From the IMG/VR virus record IMGVR_UViG_3300021404_000018, positions 1-50,211 of that record: DNA of 50,211 nt; one strand, 5' to 3'. Positions 1 to 50,211 of the stretch are shown in pieces. The stretch is from a virus. A model generated the notes under the pieces. That model did no database searches, was not told the DNA's origin, and saw only the letters and a list, made by a program, of their open reading frames with translations. Both the position numbers and the translations under genes were made by a program. The first letter of the stretch is position 1. The number at the start of each line of letters is the position of its first letter.

Positions 1-94
1 GGACGCCAATGGTTTGTGTGGTTTCGTGGTAGCACACCCGAGCCACATTCGAGCTGTCAGGTGTGTCAGTCCACTTCAAATCAGGTTGTGACAT
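1..94 (-). CDS. KTSC-domain protein, 5' part only (left copy)
   Basis: This is the N-terminal third of the gene that is complete at 49885-50157, cut off here by the window edge. The start is ATG at 94 (MSQPDLKW), preceded by a GGGGAC ribosome binding site in the reverse strand. It is an artefact of linearisation and not a second gene, unless the terminal repeat is real. Confidence 0.85.
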   Translation of the reverse strand, partial: MSQPDLKWTDTPDSSNVARVCYHETTQTIGV

Positions 95-119
95 AGCCGT
101 CCCCTTGCTGTTGATAGAG

Positions 120-135
120 CCCACGCTGACGTGGG
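120..135. other. Perfect hairpin in the leader of the KTSC gene
   Basis: CCCACG-CTGA-CGTGGG forms a perfect 6-bp stem with a tetraloop, 26 nt upstream of the KTSC start on the leftward transcript. No T-run follows on either strand, so it is not a typical intrinsic terminator. It may be an RNA stability or processing structure. It is duplicated near the right end through the terminal repeat. Confidence 0.5.
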
Positions 136-152
136 TTCGACAAACAGTAAGA

Positions 153-3241: not shown

Positions 3242-3781
3242 TTGGCTTACCTAAGTATTAAAGACGACCGCATCGAATCCAACGCGTACACTGGCCGGAA
3301 GCTCACCCCCAAGATGCTTTCGTTCATTGACGCGTATTTTGGTGCGGCCAATTTCAATGCGCTCCGTGCCATAGAGCTTTCAGACTACAATTGCAAGACC
3401 AAGCACTCCATTCATCAGACAAGCGCCGAGTTGATGAACCACCCACTGGTGAAGGCCGAGATTGACAAGCGGCTCGCCAAGCGGGAACAGAAATCCGAAG
3501 TCAAAGCCGAATACCTGATCAACAAGCTTATCGAGATCATCGATAACCTGGGAGAGTCAGAGAAGACCGCTGACAGGCTTCGGGCAATCGAGCTGGCAGG
3601 TAAGGCCATCGCGCTCTGGAAAGAGCGTCAGGAGGTCACTGGGGCCGACGGCGGGGCCATCCAGCACGAACAACATGTAAAGGAATCCGTTGCAGACTTC
3701 ACCAGCCGAATTTCTAGCCTCGTTAAGCGAGGAGGAACGTCTAACGTTGTTAGCTTCCCTGAGCGAGGAGGAACAGGCTGA
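3242..3781 (+). CDS. terS: Terminase small subunit
   Basis: A TTG start is chosen because GGAG lies 8 nt upstream and no other start fits. The 179-residue product has the usual layout: an N-terminal helical DNA-binding part (LTPKMLSFIDAYFGA then NHPLVKAEID), a Lys/Glu-rich central coiled coil (about 75-120) and a variable Gly-rich tail. It recognises phage DNA and hands it to the large subunit for packaging. The start of the large subunit lies inside its 3' end, as expected for a coupled pair. The family call rests on layout and position; the primary sequence is weakly conserved. Confidence 0.8.
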   Translation: MAYLSIKDDRIESNAYTGRKLTPKMLSFIDAYFGAANFNALRAIELSDYNCKTKHSIHQTSAELMNHPLVKAEIDKRLAKREQKSEVKAEYLINKLIEIIDNLGESEKTADRLRAIELAGKAIALWKERQEVTGADGGAIQHEQHVKESVADFTSRISSLVKRGGTSNVVSFPERGGTG

Positions 3782-5117
3782 GCTTAGGTGGCACTGGCGT
3801 TTCTGGGCTAGACCCAATCAAATCGCCCCCGAGGGCCAAGACTGGAACACCTGGATGGTTCTGGCTGGGCGGGGCTTCGGTAAGACCCGGATGGGGTCGG
3901 AGTGGATTAGAGAGAACGTCTGTGGAGCATCACCCCTTGCGCCTCCCCCCAGCGGATGGAAGCGAATTGCCCTTGTGGCTGAGACTGCCGCTGATGCGCG
4001 GGACGTTATGGTTCTCGGAGACTCAGGTATCCTGGCTTGTCACCCGAAGGACATGCGGCCCGAATGGTCGCCAACCAATCGCCGCCTAACGTGGCCCAAC
4101 GGGGTTGAAGCATGGGTTTATAATGCGACTGAACCAGACCAGCTCCGAGGCCCCCAGCATCATGCCGCTTGGGTGGACGAACTGGCGAAGTTCCGCTACA
4201 TGCAGGAAACTTGGGATCAACTCCAGTTTGGTCTACGCCTGGGGGACCATCCGCAAGCTCTCGTTACTACCACCCCGCGTCCTCTTCCCCTTATCAAACG
4301 GCTCATTAACGATCCAGACACTAGGGTCACGAGGGGAGCCACACTTGATAACCAGGCTAATCTTGCAGCAAATACCGTTAAACAACTTTACGAGCGCTAT
4401 GGTGGAACACGACTTGGTCGGCAGGAACTTGAAGGTGAAATCCTTCACGACATCCCGGGCGCTCTTTGGAACCGAGACATTATCGATGCCAGCAGGCTTC
4501 GGGAGGTCCCGGACGATCTAGAAAGGGTCTACGTGGCAGTTGACCCTGCAGTCAGTAACACCGAAAACTCTGACGAACATGGCATTATCGTGGTCGGTCT
4601 TGCCAGGGACCCGGAGGGTTACGCCAGAGGCTACGTTCTGGACGACGGTAGTTGTCGGGGTCAACCCGAAGAGTGGGCTCGAAAGGCTGTCAGTCTTTAT
4701 CGCACTTGGTCGGCGGACAAGATCATCGCCGAAAAGAACCAAGGTGGCGATATGGTTATGAGTACGTTGAAGGCAGTTGACCGGTCTATTCCTGTTGAAC
4801 TGGTGACAGCGACGAGAGGTAAGGTCGTTCGGGCCGAGCCGATCAGTGCCCTGTACGAGCAGGGCCGGGTTCACCATTGTGGTAGGTTTGACGTTCTTGA
4901 AGATCAAATGTGTCTTTTCTCCATCGACAATGTCCGCAACGCCTCCAATGGTAGCCCGGACAGGGTGGACGCTCTGGTTTGGGGTCTTACAAAGATTTTT
5001 GACAAGATCGTTGGCCGCCGTCTTATCGACACTAACACTGTGGACAAAACCAAACAACTGGAGGAGCAATATGCGCTGGACTGGGCCAAAGAATCGCCTA
5101 CCGGTTGGATGGCCTAA
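3690..5117 (+). CDS. terL: Terminase large subunit
   Basis: ATP-driven DNA packaging motor and headful nuclease of 475 residues. Walker A is GRGFGKT (about residue 60), the Walker B-like strand is AAWVDELAKF (about 150), and the C-terminal RNase-H-like nuclease begins YVAVDPAVS (about 285) with further acidic residues (IIAEKNQGGD, DRVDALVWG). This is the Terminase_6 type. The frame overlaps the small subunit gene by about 90 bases. The TTG at 3690 is the likely start. The N-terminus contains a near-duplicate LASLSEEE motif encoded by a short direct DNA repeat. Confidence 0.95.
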   Translation: MQTSPAEFLASLSEEERLTLLASLSEEEQAELRWHWRFWARPNQIAPEGQDWNTWMVLAGRGFGKTRMGSEWIRENVCGASPLAPPPSGWKRIALVAETAADARDVMVLGDSGILACHPKDMRPEWSPTNRRLTWPNGVEAWVYNATEPDQLRGPQHHAAWVDELAKFRYMQETWDQLQFGLRLGDHPQALVTTTPRPLPLIKRLINDPDTRVTRGATLDNQANLAANTVKQLYERYGGTRLGRQELEGEILHDIPGALWNRDIIDASRLREVPDDLERVYVAVDPAVSNTENSDEHGIIVVGLARDPEGYARGYVLDDGSCRGQPEEWARKAVSLYRTWSADKIIAEKNQGGDMVMSTLKAVDRSIPVELVTATRGKVVRAEPISALYEQGRVHHCGRFDVLEDQMCLFSIDNVRNASNGSPDRVDALVWGLTKIFDKIVGRRLIDTNTVDKTKQLEEQYALDWAKESPTGWMA

Positions 5118-37943: not shown

Positions 37944-38489
37944 TTAAGTTTTTGTCTTTTCGTGTACTCCGTGACGGATTTTGAGTGCTTGATGAATTTC
38001 GATAGGGCTATAGTCGGTGTGCTCCAAACTCACGCAAACGTAGCGCGGATCGTCGATCTTCTGGTAATGCAGGTGGCCGTGGATGTTGGTGCCATACCTA
38101 CCGATGGAGTCCGGATGGATCGGGATGTGACTCAGGATGACCTTGTTGCCGTCTTGATCCTTCTGAACTACGTACGCCCTGATGTCATCGAAAAAGGGAA
38201 GGTACTCATTCAACTTGAAGATGTCATGGTTGCCCTTGACTAGGACGAGCCGCCCGTGAAGGCGAGACAGAATGAACCGATTACGACGGTTGATACAAAC
38301 GTCACCAAGAAGGTAGACTCGATCCGCCGGATCAACGACGGCATTGTGCTTTGCGATGATTGTTTCGTCATGTTCCTCAATGGTCTTGAAGTCACGGAGT
38401 GGGGTTCCATCGTCTCGTTTGAACGTGAGAATATTGGAATGGCCAAAGTGATGATCAGCAGAGACCCAAGTCTTAGAAGACTTTGCCAA
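37944..38489 (-). CDS. Metallophosphoesterase, calcineurin-like
   Basis: The full motif set is present: WVSADHHFGHSNI, YLLGDVCIN, LVKGNHD, VILSHIPIH and NIHGHLHYQK. These bind two metal ions to cleave phosphoesters. Phage proteins of this type act on nucleotides or RNA 2',3'-cyclic phosphates, but the substrate cannot be told. The TTG at 38489 (181 aa) fits the overlap habit of the operon; an ATG at 38513 is the alternative. Confidence 0.88.
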   Translation of the reverse strand: MAKSSKTWVSADHHFGHSNILTFKRDDGTPLRDFKTIEEHDETIIAKHNAVVDPADRVYLLGDVCINRRNRFILSRLHGRLVLVKGNHDIFKLNEYLPFFDDIRAYVVQKDQDGNKVILSHIPIHPDSIGRYGTNIHGHLHYQKIDDPRYVCVSLEHTDYSPIEIHQALKIRHGVHEKTKT

Positions 38490-38670
38490 GCTTGCCGTCA
38501 CGTTCCATAGCATTGATTTGCTGCTTCGTAAAACCAAGCCCGATCAGGGCCATGTGAAGGTTCATCAGTTCGTTCCAGGTCTTCTGGAGATGCACGATAG
38601 CATCTTCCTTAGTACCTTCTTCGGCGATGACGTTGATGAACGCTGCCGGGTGTTGCTTCTTATTTGCCAC
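38473..38670 (-). CDS. Small helical protein, unknown (65 aa)
   Basis: The GTG at 38670 overlaps the HAD gene's stop (GTGGCAAATAA); a TTG at 38697 would add nine residues. The product (ANKKQHPAAFINVIAEEG, LQKTWNELMNLHMALIGLGF) is helical and soluble. No family recognised. Confidence 0.6.
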   Translation of the reverse strand: MANKKQHPAAFINVIAEEGTKEDAIVHLQKTWNELMNLHMALIGLGFTKQQINAMERDGKLGKVF

Positions 38671-39163
38671 GACTTCCGCGACCTCCGATTTGATCAATGA
38701 CGCTACCTACGATACCATCAAAGAAGTCAACAAGAATGAGATGCTTTTCCATGTCCTCAGGGTGAGGATAGTCTTGAACGGCCTTGTACAGGTCAATATC
38801 AACGCTATAGGGCTCGTCGTCCAGCATGTGGTAACGAGTCACTTCGGGGTGCTGGGCCAGCCACTTAGCGACACGAGTGTACCGCCAATGGATTTCTCCA
38901 TCGCACCATGCGTCCTTGTGGAAATACTGAGGCTTCAGACCCTGCTCGATGCAATGGTCGTAAGTCTCCTGTTCGCCAAACACGCGAAGCCAGCTTGAAT
39001 GGATGACCATCCGCCAGCCCTTCTCTTGACACCATCGGTTCAGCAACCCGACAGCGCAAGGGTCAAAGGTCTTCACGAGGGGTCGGGTCTGATTGGCCAT
39101 GTTGTACGCACGGCCAGGGATCAGAGGCCCATCGATGTCGATGAAGAGTATCTTAGCTACCAT
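38660..39163 (-). CDS. HAD-superfamily phosphatase
   Basis: 167 residues with HAD motif I ILFIDIDGPLIPG (nucleophile Asp and acid Asp), motif II MVIHSSWLRVFG and an acidic motif LDDEPYSVD. A phosphatase acting on a nucleotide or a polynucleotide end (as in the phosphatase part of T4 Pnk) is likely. It overlaps its neighbours at both ends. Beside the metallophosphoesterase, this gives the phage two phosphate-removing enzymes. Confidence 0.8.
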   Translation of the reverse strand: MVAKILFIDIDGPLIPGRAYNMANQTRPLVKTFDPCAVGLLNRWCQEKGWRMVIHSSWLRVFGEQETYDHCIEQGLKPQYFHKDAWCDGEIHWRYTRVAKWLAQHPEVTRYHMLDDEPYSVDIDLYKAVQDYPHPEDMEKHLILVDFFDGIVGSVIDQIGGRGSRGK

Positions 39164-40234: not shown

Positions 40235-40411
40235 CTAATGCTTTCCCTTGTACAGGCAGACCGTGTAATGCTTAACCGGGAGTGGGGCCGCAGCGATGGC
40301 CTCTTCCGGACTGTCGAACTTGTCCGCCTCCATGGGATCAACACAGCTTCCGAACATCGCGGAAGACTTAACGAGAAGACCAGAGTTGTTGTGGCGTAGG
40401 TAGTATTTCAT
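40235..40411 (-). CDS. Small protein, unknown (58 aa)
   Basis: ATG in TAATG after the 136-aa gene. The product (MKYYLRHNNSGLLVKSSAM, then FDSPEEAIAAAPLPVKHYTV) looks like a compact alpha/beta domain with two Cys. No family recognised. It is the last gene before the zinc-ribbon gene and thyX. Confidence 0.65.
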   Translation of the reverse strand: MKYYLRHNNSGLLVKSSAMFGSCVDPMEADKFDSPEEAIAAAPLPVKHYTVCLYKGKH

Positions 40412-40821
40412 TACAGCTTCCTGTCATGCGCGGGGAAGTTGTCGTCCATGAAGTCCTGAACGAACTGACGTTCCGCTGCGGGAAGGGTTTGGCTCATGTT
40501 GTGGAGACGGGTGCGAATGGCCTTCTCCTGGTTGTACGGATCAGGAAAGAAGTCAACGATGTTGTCACAGCGCTTCATCAGCTCGCTCTGACGAGTGGCC
40601 GAAATGCCCCCAGGGACGGGGAACAGAGGAACAACAGTGCCCTCAGTGGGCTTCGCGGGCAGCACCGGGCCGATGGGCTTCGGGCTGTACCGGAACGACA
40701 CGAACTGACCGTAGATGCGTTGCTCCACAGCGTAACCGTACTTGTTGCAAAGCTTGGACTCAAGATTGAAGGGCAACCCCGGCTTGAACTTGAGCACCCT
40801 GAGGCTGGGCTTACTGGGCAT
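40411..40821 (-). CDS. Amidoligase-cluster protein, unknown (136 aa)
   Basis: ATG inside the ATP-grasp gene's end (ATGCCCAGTAA). The 136-residue product has a beta-rich first half (LRVLKFKPGLPFNLESKL, YGQFVSFRYSPKPIGP) and a helical second half (ERQFVQDFMDDNFPAHDRKL). It is tied to the amidoligase operon by overlap, so it could be a substrate carrier or structural partner. No family recognised. Confidence 0.65.
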   Translation of the reverse strand: MPSKPSLRVLKFKPGLPFNLESKLCNKYGYAVEQRIYGQFVSFRYSPKPIGPVLPAKPTEGTVVPLFPVPGGISATRQSELMKRCDNIVDFFPDPYNQEKAIRTRLHNMSQTLPAAERQFVQDFMDDNFPAHDRKL

Positions 40822-41563
40822 TGGCGAGTTTCTCCAAGGCGTTTGCGTACGCTTCGACTGTTTGTCCTTCAAGCCCGGGCGCAGTATTGACTTCCAGGAC
40901 ATACAGATTTCCCTTCTTGTCTTCAACGATGTCAACAGCGCCGAAGTCCAGCCCGAGGGCCGCGACTGCGCTGATGGCGAGCTTGTCCCGAGCTTCGCTG
41001 GGTTGAATGTTGTTACGCTGAAAGATGAAACCGTTCGCATGGGAGCGAACCTTCCAAGACAAAGGCTCTTGGTCGGGGTCGCGAACCTTCCGCTGAGTGT
41101 CAATGACCTCAGTCTGAGTTGCGTGAACCCGGAACTCTTTGGTCTTGAAGATGTACTTGGTATAAAGAGGAGCCGTGGGTAGCTCGTCATTCTCTTCAAC
41201 TATAACGATACCATCACCGGAGTGTCCTGTCAAGACATTCCGGACAACAATCGTGTTGCCCTTAGCTTGCCATTCCAGAGCAACCGCCTTGTTCTGGGTC
41301 CACGGAACGGTGTCGATGTCCTCACCAGCGAGAGCTGTGAAAGTGTAAATCTTGTTAGAGGCGATGCCAACGGCGGCACAGTTGTTCAGGACCTTCTTGA
41401 AGGCCATAGTGTTGTTGTCTTTGCCTTTGGTCGTGCCCCAGTTCACCAGAACATCGTCCGGCTTGAAGCTCTTGCCCGTCACAAAACGTCTGAACCCCTC
41501 TCCTTGAGAGAGTTCCTTCGCGCTGTTGGACGGGCGTCCTCCGGTGTAAATCCAAATCTTCAA
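40811..41563 (-). CDS. ATP-grasp ligase
   Basis: 250 residues. ATP-grasp signatures are visible: GNTIVVRNVLTGHSGDGIVIVE (glycine loop and nucleotide-binding strand), YTKYIFKTKEFRVHA, and the metal-binding end FGAVDIVEDKKGNLYVLEVNTAPG. Such enzymes join a carboxylate to an amine through an acyl phosphate, often to make peptides (RimK-like). The start is TTG at 41563, overlapping the amidoligase stop (TTGA). It is one of three different carboxylate-amine ligases in this operon. Confidence 0.85.
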   Translation of the reverse strand: MKIWIYTGGRPSNSAKELSQGEGFRRFVTGKSFKPDDVLVNWGTTKGKDNNTMAFKKVLNNCAAVGIASNKIYTFTALAGEDIDTVPWTQNKAVALEWQAKGNTIVVRNVLTGHSGDGIVIVEENDELPTAPLYTKYIFKTKEFRVHATQTEVIDTQRKVRDPDQEPLSWKVRSHANGFIFQRNNIQPSEARDKLAISAVAALGLDFGAVDIVEDKKGNLYVLEVNTAPGLEGQTVEAYANALEKLANAQ

Positions 41564-42438
41564 CGGCGAGACCTTTCCGTCCAGGTGGAGCAGTAAGCGA
41601 GGTCTTGGGCGACCCGCATACCGTCCATCAGCATGTTCTCCATGCCAGGGATCGAGAGATATTTGTGGGAGAACGGGCCAAGGGCCAACTTGAGGAATTC
41701 CCGGGGACCACGCGAGCTGAACTGCCGGATGATCTCGGTGGGGTTGGTGTACGTCTTGGCGTGCTGCTTGAGATAGTCCAGCGTGCCAATCCAGTGCATC
41801 AGACGGCCCTCGTGCGTGGTGCACTCAAGCGACCTGAACTCGATGGACCCGAACTTGGTTAGGGAAGTGAAGTTGATCGAGCTGTAACGTTCGGCATTGC
41901 CGCCGAGTTGGAAGAATTGGTGACCACCCTTGATCGAGTTGGTCAGCATCAAGACCTGACCTAGAGCGTCCTTAGCCCGGAGACAGAAGTTGTTGCCAAC
42001 CCGGTGCTCACCGTTCTGGCTCACGAACAGCTCGTCAAGGATCAGAGCCAGTGTGATGAAGTTGTAGATGGTGCGGAGCTTCTCCGTCCCAAAGTTAACG
42101 TGGACGTGAACGGACGTCCGGTACGAGTTGTACACCTTCACCGTGGGTTGGTTCAGGTAGTCGAACAGCGTGGTGACCGCTTCTCTGACCTTTTCCAACG
42201 GCATCGGAGAACGGCACACGAACTCGTACGCATCGTCGCCGGGCTTCAGTTTGCGCAGCGAGTGGTCGTCGATGATGTTCCAGAAAGCGTCCACGGCGTG
42301 AGTGATGTTGCCGAGGTTCTTGCCCTCCACCTCAACCTCGACGCCGAAGCTGTCAGGGTTGTTGAGAGCTTCCCGCTGGATCGGGATGTGATCGGAAAGT
42401 CGCTGGTTCAAATCCATCAGAGCAGTGTATTGGTGCAT
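41560..42438 (-). CDS. Amidoligase, PF12224-type (glutamine-synthetase fold)
   Basis: 292 residues. FGVEVEVEGKN near residue 33, YEFVCRSPMPLE, SVHVHVNFG and SINFTSLTKFGSIEFRSLE match the putative amidoligase family (PF12224), which shares the catalytic core of glutamine synthetase (metal-binding Glu and His). It should form amide or peptide bonds with ATP. It begins right after the previous stop and is overlapped by the ATP-grasp gene. Confidence 0.85.
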   Translation of the reverse strand: MHQYTALMDLNQRLSDHIPIQREALNNPDSFGVEVEVEGKNLGNITHAVDAFWNIIDDHSLRKLKPGDDAYEFVCRSPMPLEKVREAVTTLFDYLNQPTVKVYNSYRTSVHVHVNFGTEKLRTIYNFITLALILDELFVSQNGEHRVGNNFCLRAKDALGQVLMLTNSIKGGHQFFQLGGNAERYSSINFTSLTKFGSIEFRSLECTTHEGRLMHWIGTLDYLKQHAKTYTNPTEIIRQFSSRGPREFLKLALGPFSHKYLSIPGMENMLMDGMRVAQDLAYCSTWTERSRR

Positions 42439-43041
42439 CTAACCCAATGCCTCGTAGAGGGTTTCCTTGAGATATTCGGCTTGTGGGACCAGAACGACAG
42501 GCGTCTTACCACCCACAATACCGATCCCGTTTGCACGATAATAGAGAGGATACGTCTTGTCCTCAGCCTGATAGCCAAGGGCAAAGTCGCGATGCCAAGC
42601 CGCCGTGTGCGCTTTGCCGTCACGCACTTGCTTCTTAGCTTCCTCGAAAGAGGTGTAGTCGTTACGCAACATACTAACATAGCTCTTGTTAAATTGAAAG
42701 CCCGCCTTCGGGTTCACTCCCCAATCTCCGTTAAAGAACCGGAGTTGCTCGGCCTTAAGACCTTGCTGGTACTGCTTGGCGGGACGTCGGTACCACCACG
42801 TAGCAATTCCGGCATGATTGGCATAGCCGATGTTGTAATCCCGATAGCGGAACTGAGGATCGTGAAGATCAACGATCTCAGATGGCTGGTTCAGAGCCGC
42901 GACGGACAGACGAAACGCCTTAGCATCGTCGTCGTCGTGGAAGGCCGTCTTGACGTAGACTGGTTCGTCCTTGTAGTAGCAGATCGTGCCGACGAACTTG
43001 GCTGTGACGTCGTTCAGATTGTCGAACTTAGGCAGCGGCAT
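42439..43041 (-). CDS. Amidoligase-cluster protein, unknown (200 aa)
   Basis: ATG overlaps the end of the COOH-NH2 ligase gene by 14 bases. The 200-residue product is mixed alpha/beta (VGTICYYKDEPVYVKTAF, AGIATWWYRRPAKQYQQG, TPVVLVPQAEYLKETLYEAL). Tyr and Trp are frequent. No catalytic motif is clear. Its fixed place between two amidoligases suggests it provides substrate binding or is the target of modification. Confidence 0.7.
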   Translation of the reverse strand: MPLPKFDNLNDVTAKFVGTICYYKDEPVYVKTAFHDDDDAKAFRLSVAALNQPSEIVDLHDPQFRYRDYNIGYANHAGIATWWYRRPAKQYQQGLKAEQLRFFNGDWGVNPKAGFQFNKSYVSMLRNDYTSFEEAKKQVRDGKAHTAAWHRDFALGYQAEDKTYPLYYRANGIGIVGGKTPVVLVPQAEYLKETLYEALG

Positions 43042-43864
43042 GGAAAGGCAGCGGCTCCAGGTTCAGATCGCACCAGCCGAATTCTTCCGGCCAGTCCGTC
43101 TTGTTGTTGTCGATGACGTCCCTGGCGATGTCGCCATAGGTGTCCTCGGCCCACAGACCGGCGAAACCATCGGCGATGGCCGTTTGGAGGGTGTTATAGA
43201 CCCAACGCATCAGAGGTTCGCTGTCAAGCCAGCGGTTGGAAAGAACGCGGTACTCCAGGCCGTACGACTTGGGACGGAACGCCCCGGCCTTGCCGTACAG
43301 GGACCGGCGAGTGCCGTCCTTGTCCCAGAACAGGGAGTACATCCCGAGGTAGTAATCGAGCTGCCGAGCGACCTTGCAGCACAGCTTGAAGTGCTCGTGG
43401 TCTTCCGGGTCGAAGCCCTCACCCCAGCCGATGTGAAGATGGCCGCTGGCGGTCCGCATCGGTTCCCCTTGTGGGTCCGGGCGGGGGTTCACGTCCTCGG
43501 TCCAGCCGTTGAAGTCGGGCATACAGCCCAGCTCTTGCGCCGAAGACGGGACCTCGAACTTGAAGTAGTCCGCGTTGAAGCGGGCCACGGGCTCGGCGAC
43601 CACGTTGTAGCCGGGAACCATGTCCACCAGCGATTGGCGAACGGCGTGAATGTGATGAACGAACTCGTCAACGGACGTGGCGGGGTCGATGTTGAACTCC
43701 AGCGCCGTGCCATCGACTTGCACAGCGCCGTAGGGCACCTTGAACGGCTCCCACTTGGTTCCGGGGATGCGATCATGGGCGGAAACGAAGTCACCGTTAT
43801 CCGGGTGACGCATGAAGAGTTCGGGATCAGCGCCCACGAGGACGCGATTGGCAGTCACTTGCAT
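43028..43864 (-). CDS. COOH-NH2 ligase, phiEco32 type (glutamine-synthetase fold)
   Basis: 278 residues with the phage COOH-NH2 ligase signature: GADPELFMRH, DGTALEFNIDPA, SGHLHIGWG, then SYGLEYRVLSNRW. The Glu and His residues fit the metal and ATP site of the glutamine-synthetase fold. These proteins (PF14395 type) were predicted from comparative genomics to make peptide-like bonds. ATG with GGAAC upstream, 9 bases after the class II amidotransferase gene. It belongs to a different family from the amidoligase at 41560-42438. Confidence 0.87.
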   Translation of the reverse strand: MQVTANRVLVGADPELFMRHPDNGDFVSAHDRIPGTKWEPFKVPYGAVQVDGTALEFNIDPATSVDEFVHHIHAVRQSLVDMVPGYNVVAEPVARFNADYFKFEVPSSAQELGCMPDFNGWTEDVNPRPDPQGEPMRTASGHLHIGWGEGFDPEDHEHFKLCCKVARQLDYYLGMYSLFWDKDGTRRSLYGKAGAFRPKSYGLEYRVLSNRWLDSEPLMRWVYNTLQTAIADGFAGLWAEDTYGDIARDVIDNNKTDWPEEFGWCDLNLEPLPFHAAA

Positions 43865-43873
43865 CGGAGTTCC

Positions 43874-44965
43874 TTATGCAACCCACTTGGTGTATTCGTA
43901 TGTGTCAACATCATTGTAACAATCTTCACAAGCGTAAGGAGTATGTTTGTCGATGTGGTGGCCCATCACCTTGATGAACTCACCCCAATTTTGACCGTTC
44001 GCACCGCAAAAGCAGCAGCCTTCTTGCACCATCTGGCTGAAAGCGTCTTTCTTCAGGACCTTGCCACTGATGTCCTTGTACGGAGGACGAAACTTCTTAG
44101 TCGAAGGGCGGGCCATAAAAGGGATTTCGTTGTCCATGTAGTCGCCATAGGCGTAGTCGGTGGAACGAGTGTCCTTCACACCACGCCAGACGGTCGTTGA
44201 ACCCCAGTTCGCGGAGTGCCAGGTCTGGCCTTTCATCTCCACCCGCTCGGGGCTGTCGAACTGTGTCGCGATGGACTTGGGGATTTTCCACGAGTAGTGA
44301 GTGTCCGCCGTGACACTGAAGATGCCGGTGGCACCCTCCTCGGCGGGGATGAACATCTCCTTGTTCCGGCGCGACATAACGTATTCGAGCATCTTCGCTT
44401 CAGACGCCCAGATCAAAGTGCAGCGATCCTTACTGTAGCAGTAGTGCAAGGGGCGAGCGGAGTTGCGCAGGAAGTTCAGGGTGCCGTCCCGTTTGTCGTA
44501 CCAGATCAGGGCCCAAGCGCCGGCGATGATCTCCAGCGTGGCCTTGGCACCGATATCGTTAATCGATGCGAAGATGGCCTCGCTGTCCGTGCCGTACTTC
44601 TCATAGTCCTTGAGCCGCTTCAAGGCCCAGGAGTCGAGGGTGCCGTTGTGCATCCCCACGACATGGCTGAACTTGAACGGGTGGGCGTTAGCCTCGTTCT
44701 TCTCGCCCACGGTGGCGTAGCGGTTGTGGCCGAACAGAGCCTTGACCGAATTGTTCGTCGCGGTCATCTTGTCATACGCCGCTGTGGCGAACAGCTCGAA
44801 CGGATTGCCCGGCCTCTTGGCCAGCTCAAAGATGTCCTTCTCGCGGCTGATCGAGGCTGCGCCGGTGGAGTGCGTACCACGAACGCTGTCCACCATCAAC
44901 AGTTCAGTGAAAAGGTCTTTCCAGGTGAGGTTGCAGTCGCCTGCAATGCCGACTAGTCCGCACAT
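43874..44965 (-). CDS. Class II glutamine amidotransferase with zinc ribbon
   Basis: 363 residues starting MCGLVGIAG, so Cys2 becomes the N-terminal nucleophile after Met removal. GHNRYATVGEKNEANAHPF and GMHNGTLDS are the other glutaminase motifs, and GAWALIWYD continues the Ntn fold. It lacks a synthetase domain; instead the C-terminus has a zinc ribbon (GCCFCGANG then CEDCYND). It would release ammonia from glutamine for the ligases in this operon, or act as an amidohydrolase on the product. Confidence 0.9.
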   Translation of the reverse strand: MCGLVGIAGDCNLTWKDLFTELLMVDSVRGTHSTGAASISREKDIFELAKRPGNPFELFATAAYDKMTATNNSVKALFGHNRYATVGEKNEANAHPFKFSHVVGMHNGTLDSWALKRLKDYEKYGTDSEAIFASINDIGAKATLEIIAGAWALIWYDKRDGTLNFLRNSARPLHYCYSKDRCTLIWASEAKMLEYVMSRRNKEMFIPAEEGATGIFSVTADTHYSWKIPKSIATQFDSPERVEMKGQTWHSANWGSTTVWRGVKDTRSTDYAYGDYMDNEIPFMARPSTKKFRPPYKDISGKVLKKDAFSQMVQEGCCFCGANGQNWGEFIKVMGHHIDKHTPYACEDCYNDVDTYEYTKWVA

Positions 44966-45330
44966 TAAAGTTCAGTCCTCAGGTCTTCGAAATAGACGGA
45001 GTAAGGGATATCACCCTTATAGGAAACGACGCCCCACTTACGCACATCACCTTCTTCTTGGTGAATGGCGATTAGTGTACGGGGCAAAGTATTGTCGGCG
45101 TACAGTTTGTTACGCCCCTTCGTGTAAACGATATCGCCGACCTTCGGGATAGGTGGCGGAGCCGGAATGATCTCGTTAATTCGGTTGATGCTAATTGAGT
45201 GCATGAACCGACCAGGAGAGTCACAGTCAATGAAATTGAGCTTCAACGTGTCAAATGAACCCGACTTATCAATATCAGCCACAATGGCATGAAGAATAAC
45301 TTTGTCGCCTACCTTAGGCAGTGGCAACAC
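44965..45330 (-). CDS. Amidoligase-cluster protein, beta-rich (121 aa)
   Basis: GTG start overlapping the class I amidotransferase end; stop in TAATG with the next gene. Two similar beta units start PKVGDKVILHAIV and PKVGDIVYTKGRNKLYAD, resembling small SH3-like/KOW-type barrels. A similar GDIFYTTGRDDYY segment occurs in the 80-aa protein at 48155-48397. Function is unknown. Confidence 0.7.
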   Translation of the reverse strand: MLPLPKVGDKVILHAIVADIDKSGSFDTLKLNFIDCDSPGRFMHSISINRINEIIPAPPPIPKVGDIVYTKGRNKLYADNTLPRTLIAIHQEEGDVRKWGVVSYKGDIPYSVYFEDLRTEL

Positions 45331-45973
45331 GTTGCGTCTCCTTCTGGTAGTGGCGGATCAGCTCGATGCTGAAGTCCGCAAAACGGGAGCCGGGGATGTA
45401 TTCGGGATGTCCCTGAATGCAAAGAGTGGACGTCTTGGGGTACCAGACGATCTCCGTGTCCTTGTGGTGATCGTCGTAGCGGAACTCGGGGAAGTGAGCA
45501 CGTTCGGCGTCCTTCCGCGTGGCAACATCAGCATAGCCCAGCACGACGCCCTCAACACTGGGGCGCATCATCTGGTGGTGCGTTGACGTCACCTCCATCT
45601 GCTCGCCTGTGGGCAGGAACGTCATGAGGTGCGACTGGCCGTGATTGTTCACGTCCTGCCACAGCGTGCCGCCGTTGAGACAGTTGAGAAGCTGAGCCCC
45701 ACGGCAAATCCCCACCTTGAGAACGGCTGGGTCGTGGAACTTGGTGAACACACCGATCTCAGTGGTGTCCCGCTGAGACTGTTCTTCGGGAATGAAACGG
45801 CTGATGGGCTTCTCGCCGTAAATCTTAGTGCCGATGTCAGCACCACCGTTGAACACGATCACCTCGGCGAGTTCCGGGTTGTCCACCGAAGTGAAGCCCG
45901 CCTCTTCGAGTAGTTCCTTCATGCCAGGGTCGGCACCGAAGCGAGTGATCGAATGAAAGGTGATGCTAGTCAT
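45314..45973 (-). CDS. Class I glutamine amidotransferase / peptidase C26-like
   Basis: 219 residues. The triad is Cys90 (GICRGAQLLN), His189 and Glu191 (IQGHPEYIPG), with the oxyanion region FNGGADIGTKIYG near 43-53. The layout is of the gamma-glutamyl hydrolase (C26) branch of class I amidotransferases. It could supply ammonia or cut gamma-glutamyl bonds. The start is the ATG overlapping the previous stop (ATGACTAG). Having class I and class II amidotransferases together is unusual. Confidence 0.88.
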   Translation of the reverse strand: MTSITFHSITRFGADPGMKELLEEAGFTSVDNPELAEVIVFNGGADIGTKIYGEKPISRFIPEEQSQRDTTEIGVFTKFHDPAVLKVGICRGAQLLNCLNGGTLWQDVNNHGQSHLMTFLPTGEQMEVTSTHHQMMRPSVEGVVLGYADVATRKDAERAHFPEFRYDDHHKDTEIVWYPKTSTLCIQGHPEYIPGSRFADFSIELIRHYQKETQRVATA

Positions 45974-47000
45974 CATCGTCGAAGTCAGGGAAGTCGTATT
46001 CATCAATGTCCCAATCCGGGGGTTGAGGAGGTTGAACGGGAGCAGCATCGATCTGCTGTGGGAAAACGGGAGGAATGGCATTAAGGTGAACACCACCAGC
46101 CTGCTGATTGGCGATGATCTGAGCCCACGCACCAGCCAAAGGCTGAGGCATAGGATCAACCGCAGGAGCCGCTCCGACCATCTCGTCGTGAATGGCTTGA
46201 TGAAGAGCCTGCCCAGCTTCAATGTCATAAACGTACTTCTTCATCAAACCAGCCTCAGGCGTGAGCCGCTTGCGAGGCTCGGGCTTGGGCTTCAGCTTGA
46301 TGTCAAAAATCTCACCCACCTGACTGTCAGTCAGACGAGCCAACTTGTAGTGAAGATCAGACTTGCCCCAAATCACATTGGCTGGTGTTGTGTTCCAAGG
46401 TGCGTCCCTGAAACTCTTCACCGTCAGATCGGGTGAACCGGCTAGCAGTTTGTGCCAGTCGGCAGCCGGATCGAACCAGAAATGATTGTGGCACGGGAAC
46501 TCGCGCTCCTTCTTGAAGGGCTTGCCAGCCGTGCTGTACGACAGCAGAAAAGAAAAGAACTCCGGATAGCCCTCTTTGACCAGCTCTCTCCAACGCTCGA
46601 AGAGATACGGATACTCGATGGGCACACGGCTAGCAATGCAGAAGTTGAACAAGACATTCGCCGGCCACTTGTCCAGGTGATCCACCTGAATGTAGTAGTC
46701 GTGTTTGTGCTTCTTCAAAGTGATGAGATCGCCGAACGCCCTGAACGGGCCGTGGATGAGCATCCGAATGTAACGTATACTGATCTCGTCGCGCATCGGC
46801 ATGGCTGTGACCAGATGATCATAACCAGCACTGTGGAACCGCATGTCGGCGTGGCACACGGACGCGAGCCGAAGTTTCGGGGGAATGCCCGTATCTTCAG
46901 ACCAAACAAACCAAGACGAGGGAGCAAGGTCCGTCAAGCTTGGGTAAGAAGCGATTAGTTGAAGTAACTCTTTCTCGGGGGGATTGATTTCGTCTGCCAA
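45966..47000 (-). CDS. First gene of the amidoligase operon, unknown (344 aa)
   Basis: TTG start at 47000 with GAAGG upstream. The first 230 residues form a mixed, aromatic-rich domain (HADMRFHSAGYDHLVTAMP, YYIQVDHLDKWPANVLFNF, FPCHNHFWFDP). The C-terminus is Pro/Gln-rich and ends in an acidic run (DEYDFPDFDDDD). No family recognised. Placement at the head of the operon and overlap with the class I amidotransferase suggest a role in the same pathway, perhaps as a scaffold or substrate. Confidence 0.75.
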   Translation of the reverse strand: MADEINPPEKELLQLIASYPSLTDLAPSSWFVWSEDTGIPPKLRLASVCHADMRFHSAGYDHLVTAMPMRDEISIRYIRMLIHGPFRAFGDLITLKKHKHDYYIQVDHLDKWPANVLFNFCIASRVPIEYPYLFERWRELVKEGYPEFFSFLLSYSTAGKPFKKEREFPCHNHFWFDPAADWHKLLAGSPDLTVKSFRDAPWNTTPANVIWGKSDLHYKLARLTDSQVGEIFDIKLKPKPEPRKRLTPEAGLMKKYVYDIEAGQALHQAIHDEMVGAAPAVDPMPQPLAGAWAQIIANQQAGGVHLNAIPPVFPQQIDAAPVQPPQPPDWDIDEYDFPDFDDDD

Positions 47001-47166: not shown

Positions 47167-47613
47167 TTAGGCTGTGGCTTTTTCGGCCGTTTCGGCGCGT
47201 TCCTTGGCCGGCGCCTTTTTGTTGCCGGTGGGGTTCCAGGTCCCGCTGGTGTCGCGCAGGAAGAAGCCCTGATCGCCGCCGCGCGGACGCCCACGACCGA
47301 TCTCGAAGAAGCCGGCCCGTTCGATGGCCGCCATGATCCGCGCCGACGACATCTGGCCGCTGTTCAGCGTCAGGAACGTGAACTTGGGCTTCATCTGCTC
47401 GCCGTTGAAGACCTGGAAGTCCGGTCGAGCGACCTCGCAGGCGTTCTTGATGGACTCGTCGAGTTCCGCGTCGGACATGCCGTTCACGGCCTTGAAACCG
47501 CTCAGGATGGACGCACCGCAGCACAGCGGCCACAGTTGACGCCGCATTTCCGACGGAAAGTCGCCATTGAAGGTGGGACCGAACGTCGAGGGGAGAGCCT
47601 TCTTGGTGGTCAT
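47167..47613 (-). CDS. GC-rich early protein, unknown (148 aa)
   Basis: The start is the ATG at 47613 in ATGA after the 36-aa membrane gene (MTTKKALPSTFG). The product has a globular middle (SEMRRQLWPLCCGASILSG, SSARIMAAIERAGFFEIGRG) and a Lys/Ala/Glu-rich tail. Strong GC-ending codon use matches the other early genes. It is the last gene of the early unit. No family recognised. Confidence 0.8.
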   Translation of the reverse strand: MTTKKALPSTFGPTFNGDFPSEMRRQLWPLCCGASILSGFKAVNGMSDAELDESIKNACEVARPDFQVFNGEQMKPKFTFLTLNSGQMSSARIMAAIERAGFFEIGRGRPRGGDQGFFLRDTSGTWNPTGNKKAPAKERAETAEKATA

Positions 47614-47720
47614 TGCATGACCCTTTCGATGATAGAGTGGATCAGATGCCATATCAATAGCCATCCAGCGGCAGATAGGGCACCAGCGAGTGTGAGTGAA
47701 AATCCCAAACTACGGAACAT
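47610..47720 (-). CDS. Tiny membrane protein (36 aa)
   Basis: ATG with CGGAG upstream. The 36-residue product is one membrane span (LGFSLTLAGALSAAGWLLIW) with a short helical end, and its stop overlaps the next start (ATGA). Small membrane peptides like this can alter host transport or exclude other phages; the function is not known here. Confidence 0.65.
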   Translation of the reverse strand: MFRSLGFSLTLAGALSAAGWLLIWHLIHSIIERVMQ

Positions 47721-47733
47721 AACGTGAACTCCG

Positions 47734-47913
47734 TTATTCAGTTATGGGGAACCAAACATCCTCGTAGTCGTAGAAAACAGCCACGTTGTACATCAGCATA
47801 AGATCAACGTGAGTTCCAAGCCACATGATGTAACTCTTGTGGTCCTTGTGGGACGTGAGGAACTCTTTGAACGACCCGTCAGGCTGCTTGCAGCGGACGA
47901 GTGCGGCGATCAC
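47734..47913 (-). CDS. Small early protein, unknown (59 aa)
   Basis: GTG start in TAGTG after the Gly/Ser-rich gene. The product (ALVRCKQPDGSFKEFLTSHK, YIMWLGTHVDLMLMYNVAVF) ends YDYEDVWFPITE and is aromatic-rich. It follows the tight overlap habit of the early unit. No family recognised. Confidence 0.7.
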   Translation of the reverse strand: MIAALVRCKQPDGSFKEFLTSHKDHKSYIMWLGTHVDLMLMYNVAVFYDYEDVWFPITE

Positions 47914-48155
47914 TAATAGTCGCCGGAAGAGCCGCCGCCCCCGAAATCACCACCACCGCCTGAGAAGTCGGACGACGACGTGTCAGAGGAAGAGGACGAA
48001 CCGGAGTCGAAGATGGACGCGACAGCCTCACCGACAGCGAAGCCAACAGCGGCGCTCGTTGCCGAGTCACCATCATCGTCATCGTCATCATCTTCGGCGA
48101 GCATGCGCCTCCGATTGAACTCTTCGTCCGTCTCACCAGCACGACGAATAATCAT
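47913..48155 (-). CDS. Low-complexity Gly/Ser-rich early protein (80 aa)
   Basis: ATG in TGATG. The N-terminus is basic then strongly acidic (RRMLAEDDDDDDDG); a short Ala/Val/Gly-rich hydrophobic stretch (AAVGFAVGEAVASIF) is followed by a Ser- and Gly-rich tail ending GGGGSSGDY. Resembles secreted or membrane-linked repetitive proteins with a DUF-type Gly-rich end. The function is unknown. Confidence 0.65.
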   Translation of the reverse strand: MIIRRAGETDEEFNRRRMLAEDDDDDDDGDSATSAAVGFAVGEAVASIFDSGSSSSSDTSSSDFSGGGGDFGGGGSSGDY

Positions 48156-48397
48156 CACTTGATCTCCGTTATGGTCACGTCGTTATTGACGCGGACCTTC
48201 CGCTCTACGCGAACTTCGTAGAGAATGTCACCGTCGTCGAAACGTTTGACGTCTTCGGGACGGATCATGTGTAAGCCGCTGCACTCGTAGTAATCGTCGC
48301 GGCCAGTGGTGTAGAAGATGTCACCACGCTTCATAGGGTCTGGCTTCACGGCGTTCGCCACCTGTTTAGCCGCTTTGTTGAGCTTCTTACCGAGCAT
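48155..48397 (-). CDS. Small basic protein with GDxFYTxGR motif (80 aa)
   Basis: ATG in TGATG after the 51-aa gene. The N-terminus is basic helical (LGKKLNKAAKQVANAVK) and the rest is beta-rich (RGDIFYTTGRDDYYECSG, DILYEVRVERKVRVNNDV), similar to a unit in the 121-aa amidoligase-cluster protein (GDIVYTKGRNKLY). Probably a small SH3-like barrel. The function is unknown. Confidence 0.65.
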   Translation of the reverse strand: MLGKKLNKAAKQVANAVKPDPMKRGDIFYTTGRDDYYECSGLHMIRPEDVKRFDDGDILYEVRVERKVRVNNDVTITEIK

Positions 48398-49884: not shown

Positions 49885-50157
49885 TTACTTCTCGGCCTTG
49901 ATGGCGAGATAGTTGGAGAATTCCATTTCACTCTCCCAACGAGTGTAAGGGAACGCCTTGACCACTGCATTCAGGTATTTCCCAATGCTAGGGGCGTGGA
50001 CAAGGTTCTCATAGACCTCCTCGGGAGCCCCGAGATAGGAATACAGTCCACCACTGACGAATTGGACGCCAATGGTTTGTGTGGGTTCGTGGTAGCACAC
50101 CCGAGCCACATTCGAGCTGTCAGGTGTGTCAGTCCACTTCAAATCAGGTTGTGACAT
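49885..50157 (-). CDS. KTSC-domain protein (90 aa)
   Basis: ATG at 50157 (MSQPDLKWTD) with GGGGAC upstream; an ATG at 50187 without a site is ignored. The KTSC domain pattern is clear: VARVCYHEPTQTIGVQFVS, GGLYSYLGAPEEVYENLV, SIGKYLNAVVKAFPY. The domain is common in phages and bacteria, often near RNA or DNA-linked genes, but its role is not settled. It crosses the linearisation point and belongs to the leftward early unit. Confidence 0.85.
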   Translation of the reverse strand: MSQPDLKWTDTPDSSNVARVCYHEPTQTIGVQFVSGGLYSYLGAPEEVYENLVHAPSIGKYLNAVVKAFPYTRWESEMEFSNYLAIKAEK

Positions 50158-50211
50158 AGCCGTCCCCTTGCTGTTGATAGAGCCCACGCTGACGTGGGTT
50201 CGACAAACAGT
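50064..50211. repeat. Terminal repeat, right copy
   Basis: Matches bases 1-148 with one mismatch (50085 g against 22 t). This copy keeps the Pro codon in an intact KTSC gene, so it is the more trustworthy reading. Confidence 0.95.

What the first reader, a model, noticed from the sequence alone, without database searches (positions are those of the whole stretch)
40411..47000. Phage operon with three kinds of amide-bond ligase and two kinds of glutamine amidotransferase
One overlapping gene chain encodes a class I amidotransferase (Cys90/His189/Glu191), a class II amidotransferase (Cys2) with a zinc ribbon, a phiEco32-type COOH-NH2 ligase, a PF12224-type amidoligase and an ATP-grasp ligase, plus unknown proteins of 344, 121, 200 and 136 aa. 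Seen in sequence: motifs, order and start-stop overlaps. Established: each ligase family forms amide or peptide bonds with ATP, and comparative genomics has linked phage amidoligases with ATP-grasp and amidotransferase genes. Inference: the operon makes a peptide-like or amidated metabolite, or modifies a virion protein, the cell wall or DNA-linked groups, with ammonia from glutamine. The unknown 200- and 344-aa proteins may be substrate or target.
Basis: partly seen in the sequence, partly recalled or inferred. Interest (0 to 1): 0.88.

Follow-up and report, generated by a model that had tools for sequence, protein, structure and literature searches.

The report
Known phage amide-ligase module, gamma-glutamyl type
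This phage carries a compact set of enzymes, shared in much the same order by many other phages, that probably builds or alters some molecule with amide bonds early in infection; the set itself is known, but what it makes is not, and comparison across phages suggests that one step removes a temporary gamma-glutamyl group rather than supplying ammonia.

Summary
At 40411-47000 (- strand) a tightly packed, mostly overlapping chain encodes a class II glutamine amidotransferase, a PF14395 COOH-NH2 ligase, a PF12224 amidoligase and a RimK-like ATP-grasp ligase, all with catalytic-type residues intact. Two corrections. First, the 'class I amidotransferase' scores as Peptidase_C26 (PuuD/SpuA-type gamma-glutamyl hydrolases), not PF00117. 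Second, the 344- and 200-aa proteins belong to the module; the 121- and 136-aa ones do not. Among 156 distinct loci with 7 kb on both sides, the class II amidotransferase and amidoligase accompany the COOH-NH2 ligase in 156, the ATP-grasp in 149, the 200-aa protein in 124, C26 in 122, the 344-aa protein in 87.

New here: where C26 is missing, a gamma-glutamyl cyclotransferase is nearly always present, sometimes in exactly its operon slot. The likeliest reading is a pathway with gamma-glutamyl intermediates that are later trimmed; product and target are unknown. The module is already annotated in Zobellviridae, LUZ24-like and phiEco32-like phages, and a later paper cites Iyer et al. 2009 for it. 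The window phage is a new member of a known, functionally uncharacterised kind. Phylogeny-corrected support for the exchange is only suggestive.

The parts
45966..47000 (-). P344: 344-aa conserved unknown; module component; Cys49 and Arg125 99% conserved, Glu129 96%, His173 90%
   Evidence: No Pfam hit; found in 70 of 87 first-scan loci and 87 of 156 full loci; conservation; AlphaFold2 mean pLDDT 80; no PDB fold match; viral fold matches only to unnamed or uncharacterised proteins, the named ones from CW02, CVT22, GAP52, LAh_6, LAh_8, Aeromonas 4_4572, Proteus 3H10_20 and a crAss-like virus at E<=0.1
45314..45976 (-). Peptidase_C26-type class I amidotransferase-fold protein, likely gamma-glutamyl hydrolase (Cys91/His190/Glu192, S131-T-H-H-Q135)
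   Evidence: PF07722 50.6 bits vs PF00117 15.4; nearest solved relatives 3fij and 7d4r/7d50/7d53; 100% conserved triad and SxHHQ
44965..45330 (-). 121-aa protein, not a core module gene
   Evidence: relative found in only one distinct contig
43874..44965 (-). class II (Ntn) glutamine amidotransferase domain plus C-terminal Cys4 zinc-ribbon-like domain
   Evidence: PF13522 64.7 bits; Cys2 94%, C317/C320/C346/C349 98-99% conserved; nearest PDB GlmS glutaminase domain 1xff; no sugar-isomerase domain
43028..43864 (-). phiEco32-like COOH-NH2 ligase type 2 (glutamine synthetase/GCS-like amidoligase)
   Evidence: PF14395 34.7 bits; phrog_3815 E=1e-74; 316 phage records
42439..43041 (-). P200: 200-aa conserved unknown, mostly beta, with a possible small Tudor/SH3-like barrel
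   Evidence: phrog_11055 E=4e-25; in 124 of 156 full loci, nearly always between the COOH-NH2 ligase and the amidoligase; AlphaFold2 mean pLDDT 93.6; weak Tudor match 6hq9 (probability 0.97, 56 columns, rmsd 2.1, E 0.41), no global PDB match
41560..42438 (-). Amidoligase_2 family ligase
   Evidence: PF12224 44.6 bits; in 156 of 156 full loci; G32-x-E34-x-E36-x-E38 motif 100% conserved
40811..41563 (-). RimK-like ATP-grasp ligase (TTG start, 4-nt overlap with the amidoligase gene)
   Evidence: PF08443 34.2 bits; phrog_2599 E=9e-76; profile match to RimK structures 5zct and 4iwx; in 149 of 156 full loci
40411..40821 (-). 136-aa protein, only in close relatives
   Evidence: found in 20 loci including the window, 7 of the 156 distinct full loci

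Best explanation
This is a phage-borne, probably early-expressed amide-bond pathway that works through gamma-glutamyl (or related glutamyl-amide) intermediates. Two glutamine-synthetase-like ligases (PF14395, PF12224) and a RimK-like ATP-grasp ligase form successive amide bonds on one acceptor, using ATP. The class II amidotransferase releases ammonia from glutamine for one of them. The C26-type protein, or in other phages a gamma-glutamyl cyclotransferase (GGCT), later cleaves a gamma-glutamyl bond as a deprotection or trimming step. The 344-aa and 200-aa proteins are module partners of unknown role. Shown here: the families, intact active sites, near-constant co-occurrence, and the C26/GGCT exchange pattern. 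Inferred: the order of reactions, gamma-glutamyl chemistry, and that the acceptor is a small molecule or peptide made in the infected cell.
For: Family and active-site evidence. Core set constant in 156 distinct full loci: GAT-II 156, amidoligase 156, ATP-grasp 149. Of 34 loci without the C26 gene, 29 have GGCT within 9 kb, against 49 of 122 with it (Fisher p 4e-6, uncorrected). Two of the five exceptions, Privateer and 7-11, carry GGCT farther away. GGCT takes exactly the C26 slot just before GAT-II in Vibrio phage 1.293.O and in HSd1 and in further contigs. 12 of 14 C26-less clades carry GGCT (binomial p 0.006-0.024 depending on base rate). Early expression: the SU10 paper lists ATP-grasp enzyme, glutamine amidotransferase and YtfP/UPF0131 (GGCT-type) proteins detected by mass spectrometry under early gene products (PMC4281155). 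The locus lies next to primase/helicase (82 loci) and DNA polymerase (76 loci).
Against: A paired, phylogeny-aware test of the exchange had too few informative pairs to reach significance. 49 of 122 C26-positive loci also carry GGCT, so the two are not simply redundant. The C26 assignment is by sequence; no substrate is known. No enzyme of the module has been assayed as far as the papers read here say. Class I fold proteins of the PuuD type and true amidotransferases share the triad, so ammonia release is not excluded.
Confidence: 0.5

Rival explanations
1. Carboxylate amidation of the cell wall: both amidotransferases feed ammonia to the ligases, which amidate or extend peptidoglycan stem peptides and so block superinfection. 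This is how PMC10580990 reports the suggestion of Iyer et al. 2009 for phiEco32.
For: Class II GAT active site intact; published suggestion as cited in PMC10580990; the named hosts listed are Gram-negative-type bacteria of several phyla, so a common envelope target is possible.
Against: The 'class I' enzyme fits C26, not PF00117, and is exchanged for GGCT, which does not release ammonia by known chemistry. No wall-acting gene was recognised among the neighbour clusters, most of which are unannotated.
Confidence: 0.2
2. Protein modification: the RimK-like ATP-grasp and the amidoligases add glutamate or other groups to a host protein (for instance ribosomal S6) or to a phage protein such as P200 or P344.
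For: Nearest solved ATP-grasp relatives are S6-glutamate ligases; P200 and P344 travel with the enzymes.
Against: NCBIfam cut-offs for RimK are far from met; the acidic tail of P344 is limited to close relatives; P344 conserves Cys/Arg/Glu/His like a functional site; crAss-type loci lack a detectable P200.
Confidence: 0.2
3. DNA hypermodification: the ligases decorate a base or a dNTP, since the operon sits beside replication and nucleotide genes.
For: Adjacent primase/helicase and DNA polymerase in most loci; thymidylate synthase and ribonucleotide reductase in this genome.
Against: No base-hypermodification enzyme was identified among the window proteins scanned or the neighbour clusters; early genes of a phage commonly lie beside replication genes. 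The papers read here do not report on restriction of the phage DNA.
Confidence: 0.08
4. Unlinked convenience: the genes are separate auxiliary metabolic genes for glutamine/nitrogen metabolism that merely cluster.
For: All are glutamine- or glutamate-related families.
Against: Near-constant set and recurrent order over very distant phages argue for one joint function.
Confidence: 0.04

Closest known systems
Amidoligase/ATP-grasp module of Zobellviridae (PA11/TC6, CW02, Klyazma)
   Same: Same families in the same order: (P344)-C26/'glutamine amidotransferase'-class II GAT-COOH-NH2 ligase-P200-amidoligase-ATP-grasp
   Different: Window COOH-NH2 ligase is at most 54% identical to that of named phages; adds a 121-aa and a 136-aa gene of narrow distribution
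LUZ24-like / phiEco32-like module (UFV-P2, tf, phiEco32)
   Same: COOH-NH2 ligase, P200, amidoligase, class II GAT, ATP-grasp
   Different: No C26 gene; a gamma-glutamyl cyclotransferase instead; class II GAT placed after the amidoligase
PuuD / SpuA gamma-glutamyl hydrolases (Peptidase_C26)
   Same: Family score, catalytic triad and SxHHQ motif as in 3fij; nearest solved relatives. That 7d4r is SpuA is from memory
   Different: Phage protein is shorter and works in a ligase operon, not a polyamine catabolism operon
Butirosin BtrJ/BtrG gamma-glutamyl protection and removal (from memory; no paper found)
   Same: An ATP-grasp ligase adds gamma-glutamate and a GGCT-type enzyme removes it; the phage tf annotation itself cites BtrG-like
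   Different: No acyl carrier protein or aminoglycoside genes seen here; the window phage has C26, not GGCT

Membership tests
PF14395 phiEco32-like COOH-NH2 ligase | Pfam gathering score and conserved acidic/His/Arg residues | tested here: met
   34.7 bits vs 25; residues conserved in 88 relatives
PF12224 Amidoligase_2 | Pfam gathering score | tested here: met
   44.6 vs 22 bits
RimK-like ATP-grasp (PF08443) | Pfam gathering score and Mg/ATP residues D..E.N | tested here: met
   34.2 vs 21 bits; D211/E224/N226 98%
RimK (S6-glutamate ligase equivalog) | NCBIfam cut-off | tested here: not met
   29.7 vs 331 bits (NF007764), 54 vs 143.4 (TIGR00768)
Class II glutamine amidotransferase (PF13522) | Pfam score, N-terminal Cys, Asn-Gly, Arg, Asp | tested here: met
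   64.7 vs 27 bits; Cys2, Arg82, N107-G108, D127 conserved
GlmS | Full-length equivalog with sugar isomerase domains | tested here: not met
   35.2 vs 418 bits; no isomerase domain in Pfam scan
Class I glutamine amidotransferase (PF00117) | Pfam gathering score | tested here: not met
   15.4 vs 22.8 bits
Peptidase_C26 (PF07722) | Pfam gathering score, Cys-His-Glu triad, SxHHQ | tested here: met
   50.6 vs 20.5 bits; SLHHQ present in 3fij
Peptidase_C26 (PF07722) | Hydrolysis of a gamma-glutamyl amide | not testable with these tools
   needs enzyme assay
Phage amidoligase module | COOH-NH2 ligase, amidoligase, class II GAT and ATP-grasp together | tested here: met
Known anti-phage defence system | PADLOC profile match | tested here: not met
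   no match for any module gene

The most novel reading that the evidence does not exclude
The module is a phage-only biosynthetic pathway for a peptide-like small molecule made through a gamma-glutamyl protect-and-deprotect cycle, with P344 as a new enzyme family and two alternative deprotecting enzymes (C26 hydrolase or GGCT), shared by podoviruses, crAss-like and large phages.
Probability: 0.25. Interest if true: 0.85.

Novelty: new member of a known kind. Interest (0 to 1): 0.45.

Why it matters
The module is widespread, from podoviruses to crAss-like and large phages, is found almost only in phages (9 hits in a scan of 84,980 species genomes, all on metagenome-assembled contigs), and in the papers read here has no assigned function. 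The C26/GGCT exchange turns an open-ended guess about ammonia into a specific test: look for a gamma-glutamyl intermediate that accumulates when the C26 or GGCT gene is removed. It also names two unknown proteins, P344 and P200, that should be studied with the enzymes.

Tried and rejected
P344 as a RimK-type substrate through its acidic C-terminal tail: rejected, the tail is present only in a few close relatives. The 121- and 136-aa proteins as module parts: rejected on distribution. GlmS or RimK equivalog identity: cut-offs not met. Defence system: no PADLOC match. Solved-structure relatives by sequence for the two amidoligases: none convincing. Fold of P344 in the PDB: none. Strict mutual exclusion of C26 and GGCT: rejected, 49 loci have both. 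Independent-pairs test of the exchange: uninformative. Iyer et al. 2009 itself is not held, so its text, including whether it already notes the cyclotransferase, was not read. Papers on TC6, UFV-P2, Privateer and SU10 gave no DNA-modification or functional data for the module.
Full report
What is there. The window is a 50,211-base virus record whose ends overlap by about 148 bases (147 identical), so it is probably a complete genome. Head, portal, connector and terminase genes lie on the + strand; replication and nucleotide genes (primase/helicase, DNA polymerase, ribonucleotide reductase, thymidylate synthase) and the module lie on the - strand.

Assignments. Pfam places the five enzymes in PF07722, PF13522, PF14395, PF12224 and PF08443, all over the curated cut-off; PHROGs agrees. 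Its nearest NCBIfam model is gamma-glutamyl-CDP-amidate hydrolase, below that model's cut-off (22 against 250), and its nearest solved relatives are 3fij and 7d4r/7d50/7d53, the latter being, from memory, SpuA gamma-glutamyl-polyamine hydrolase. The S-x-H-H-Q motif seen in 3fij is 100% conserved in the phage family (at its Ser, His, His and Gln) together with the Cys-His-Glu triad. Catalytic-type residues of the other four enzymes are also conserved.

Conservation. A scan of IMG/VR with the COOH-NH2 ligase gave 322 relatives, of which the best 80 were kept. Together with the window and six annotated phage regions, 69 of 87 loci held all seven families (P344, C26, class II GAT, COOH-NH2 ligase, P200, amidoligase, ATP-grasp), usually in the same order; several of the rest are cut by contig ends. 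Four further scans with distant queries brought the set to 411 loci, 261 distinct, 156 with at least 7 kb on both sides. There the class II GAT and amidoligase were present in all 156, ATP-grasp in 149, P200 in 124, C26 in 122, P344 in 87 and GGCT in 78. The sample was drawn by the COOH-NH2 ligase, so these are frequencies given that gene. The order varies between lineages; for example LUZ24- and phiEco32-type loci place the class II GAT after the amidoligase, and crAss-type loci lack a detectable P200. The bacterial genome scan found only nine hits, all on metagenome-assembled contigs, so the module looks phage-specific.

C26 and GGCT. A GGCT gene (PF06094 confirmed for eight examples) is a frequent neighbour. 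It lies just upstream of the class II GAT, exactly where C26 usually lies, in Vibrio phage 1.293.O and phage HSd1 and in further contigs. Of 34 loci without C26, 29 have GGCT within 9 kb, against 49 of 122 with C26 (Fisher p 4e-6, not corrected for descent). Among the five with neither, Privateer and Salmonella phage 7-11 carry GGCT farther out. On a tree, 12 of 14 C26-less clades carry GGCT; with a base rate of 0.5 or 0.57 the binomial p is 0.006 or 0.024. An independent-pairs test had too few informative pairs. I take this as suggestive, not proven, evidence that the module needs at least one enzyme that cleaves gamma-glutamyl bonds. GGCT and C26 hydrolases share that chemistry by established knowledge, whereas GGCT is not known to supply ammonia.

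The unknown proteins. P200 folds confidently (mean pLDDT 93.6). It is mostly beta, with at best a weak local match to a Tudor domain and no global PDB match. P344 folds moderately (pLDDT 80), has no PDB match, and its viral fold matches at E<=0.1 are to unnamed or uncharacterised proteins; those with names come from CW02, CVT22, GAP52, LAh_6, LAh_8, Aeromonas 4_4572, Proteus 3H10_20 and a crAss-like virus. Of these, CW02, CVT22 and LAh_6 were seen here to carry the COOH-NH2 ligase, and Cronobacter, Proteus and Aeromonas phages are among the groups with hits to it. P344 thus probably extends beyond the 87 loci found by sequence. Its Cys49 and Arg125 are 99% conserved, Glu129 96% and His173 90%.

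Expression and literature. In the SU10 paper (a phiEco32-like phage) the ATP-grasp enzyme, glutamine amidotransferase and a YtfP/UPF0131 protein were detected by mass spectrometry and listed under early gene products; the sample was PEG-concentrated and not further purified, so this shows expression, not virion incorporation (PMC4281155). The genes are annotated without a worked-out function in the UFV-P2 and TC6 papers (PMC3890496, PMC6209634). PMC10580990 attributes to Iyer et al. 2009 the idea of cell-wall modification against superinfection in phiEco32. That primary paper is not held here, so whether it already notes the cyclotransferase could not be checked.

Verdict. Observation confirmed. 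Interpretation partly supported: right about the ligases, the class II enzyme and the linkage; probably wrong that the class I-fold enzyme is an ammonia donor. The module is known and unsolved; this phage is a new member. The contribution here is the size and constancy of the gene set, the placing of P344 and P200 inside it, and the C26/GGCT exchange as a testable clue to gamma-glutamyl chemistry.

Noticed in passing
window 1-148 and 50064-50211: Ends overlap by about 148 bases with one mismatch, indicating a complete genome with a terminal repeat or a circular assembly.
   Followed up: partly
window 3690-5117: Terminase large subunit is closest to Brevundimonas phages (about 51%), whereas the module's nearest named relatives are Zobellviridae; suggests mosaic structure.
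   Followed up: no
window 37944-38537: A 197-aa protein, apparently metallophosphoesterase-like by eye, is found in 35 of the 156 distinct module loci but has no Pfam hit at E 0.01.
   Followed up: partly
window 38660-39163: HAD_SAK_2 domain protein, a family Pfam names for RNA repair proteins.
   Followed up: no
window 47913-48158: 81-aa acidic protein with a Ser/Gly-rich tail ending DFSGGGGDFGGGGSSGDY; relative in one other contig.
   Followed up: no
window 47167-47664: 165-aa protein upstream of P344, found in 16 loci including the window, mainly close relatives; unknown.
   Followed up: partly
L048 2475 and 9986: One contig carries a second COOH-NH2 ligase homologue upstream of the module.
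   Followed up: no
L029, L036, L037, L040 and others: In several phages the ATP-grasp gene lies upstream of the class II GAT instead of at the end, or is present twice.
   Followed up: no
L060 7538-8041 and 44 other loci: A sigma-70 region 2 sigma factor lies downstream of the module in 45 loci; none was noticed in the window.
   Followed up: no
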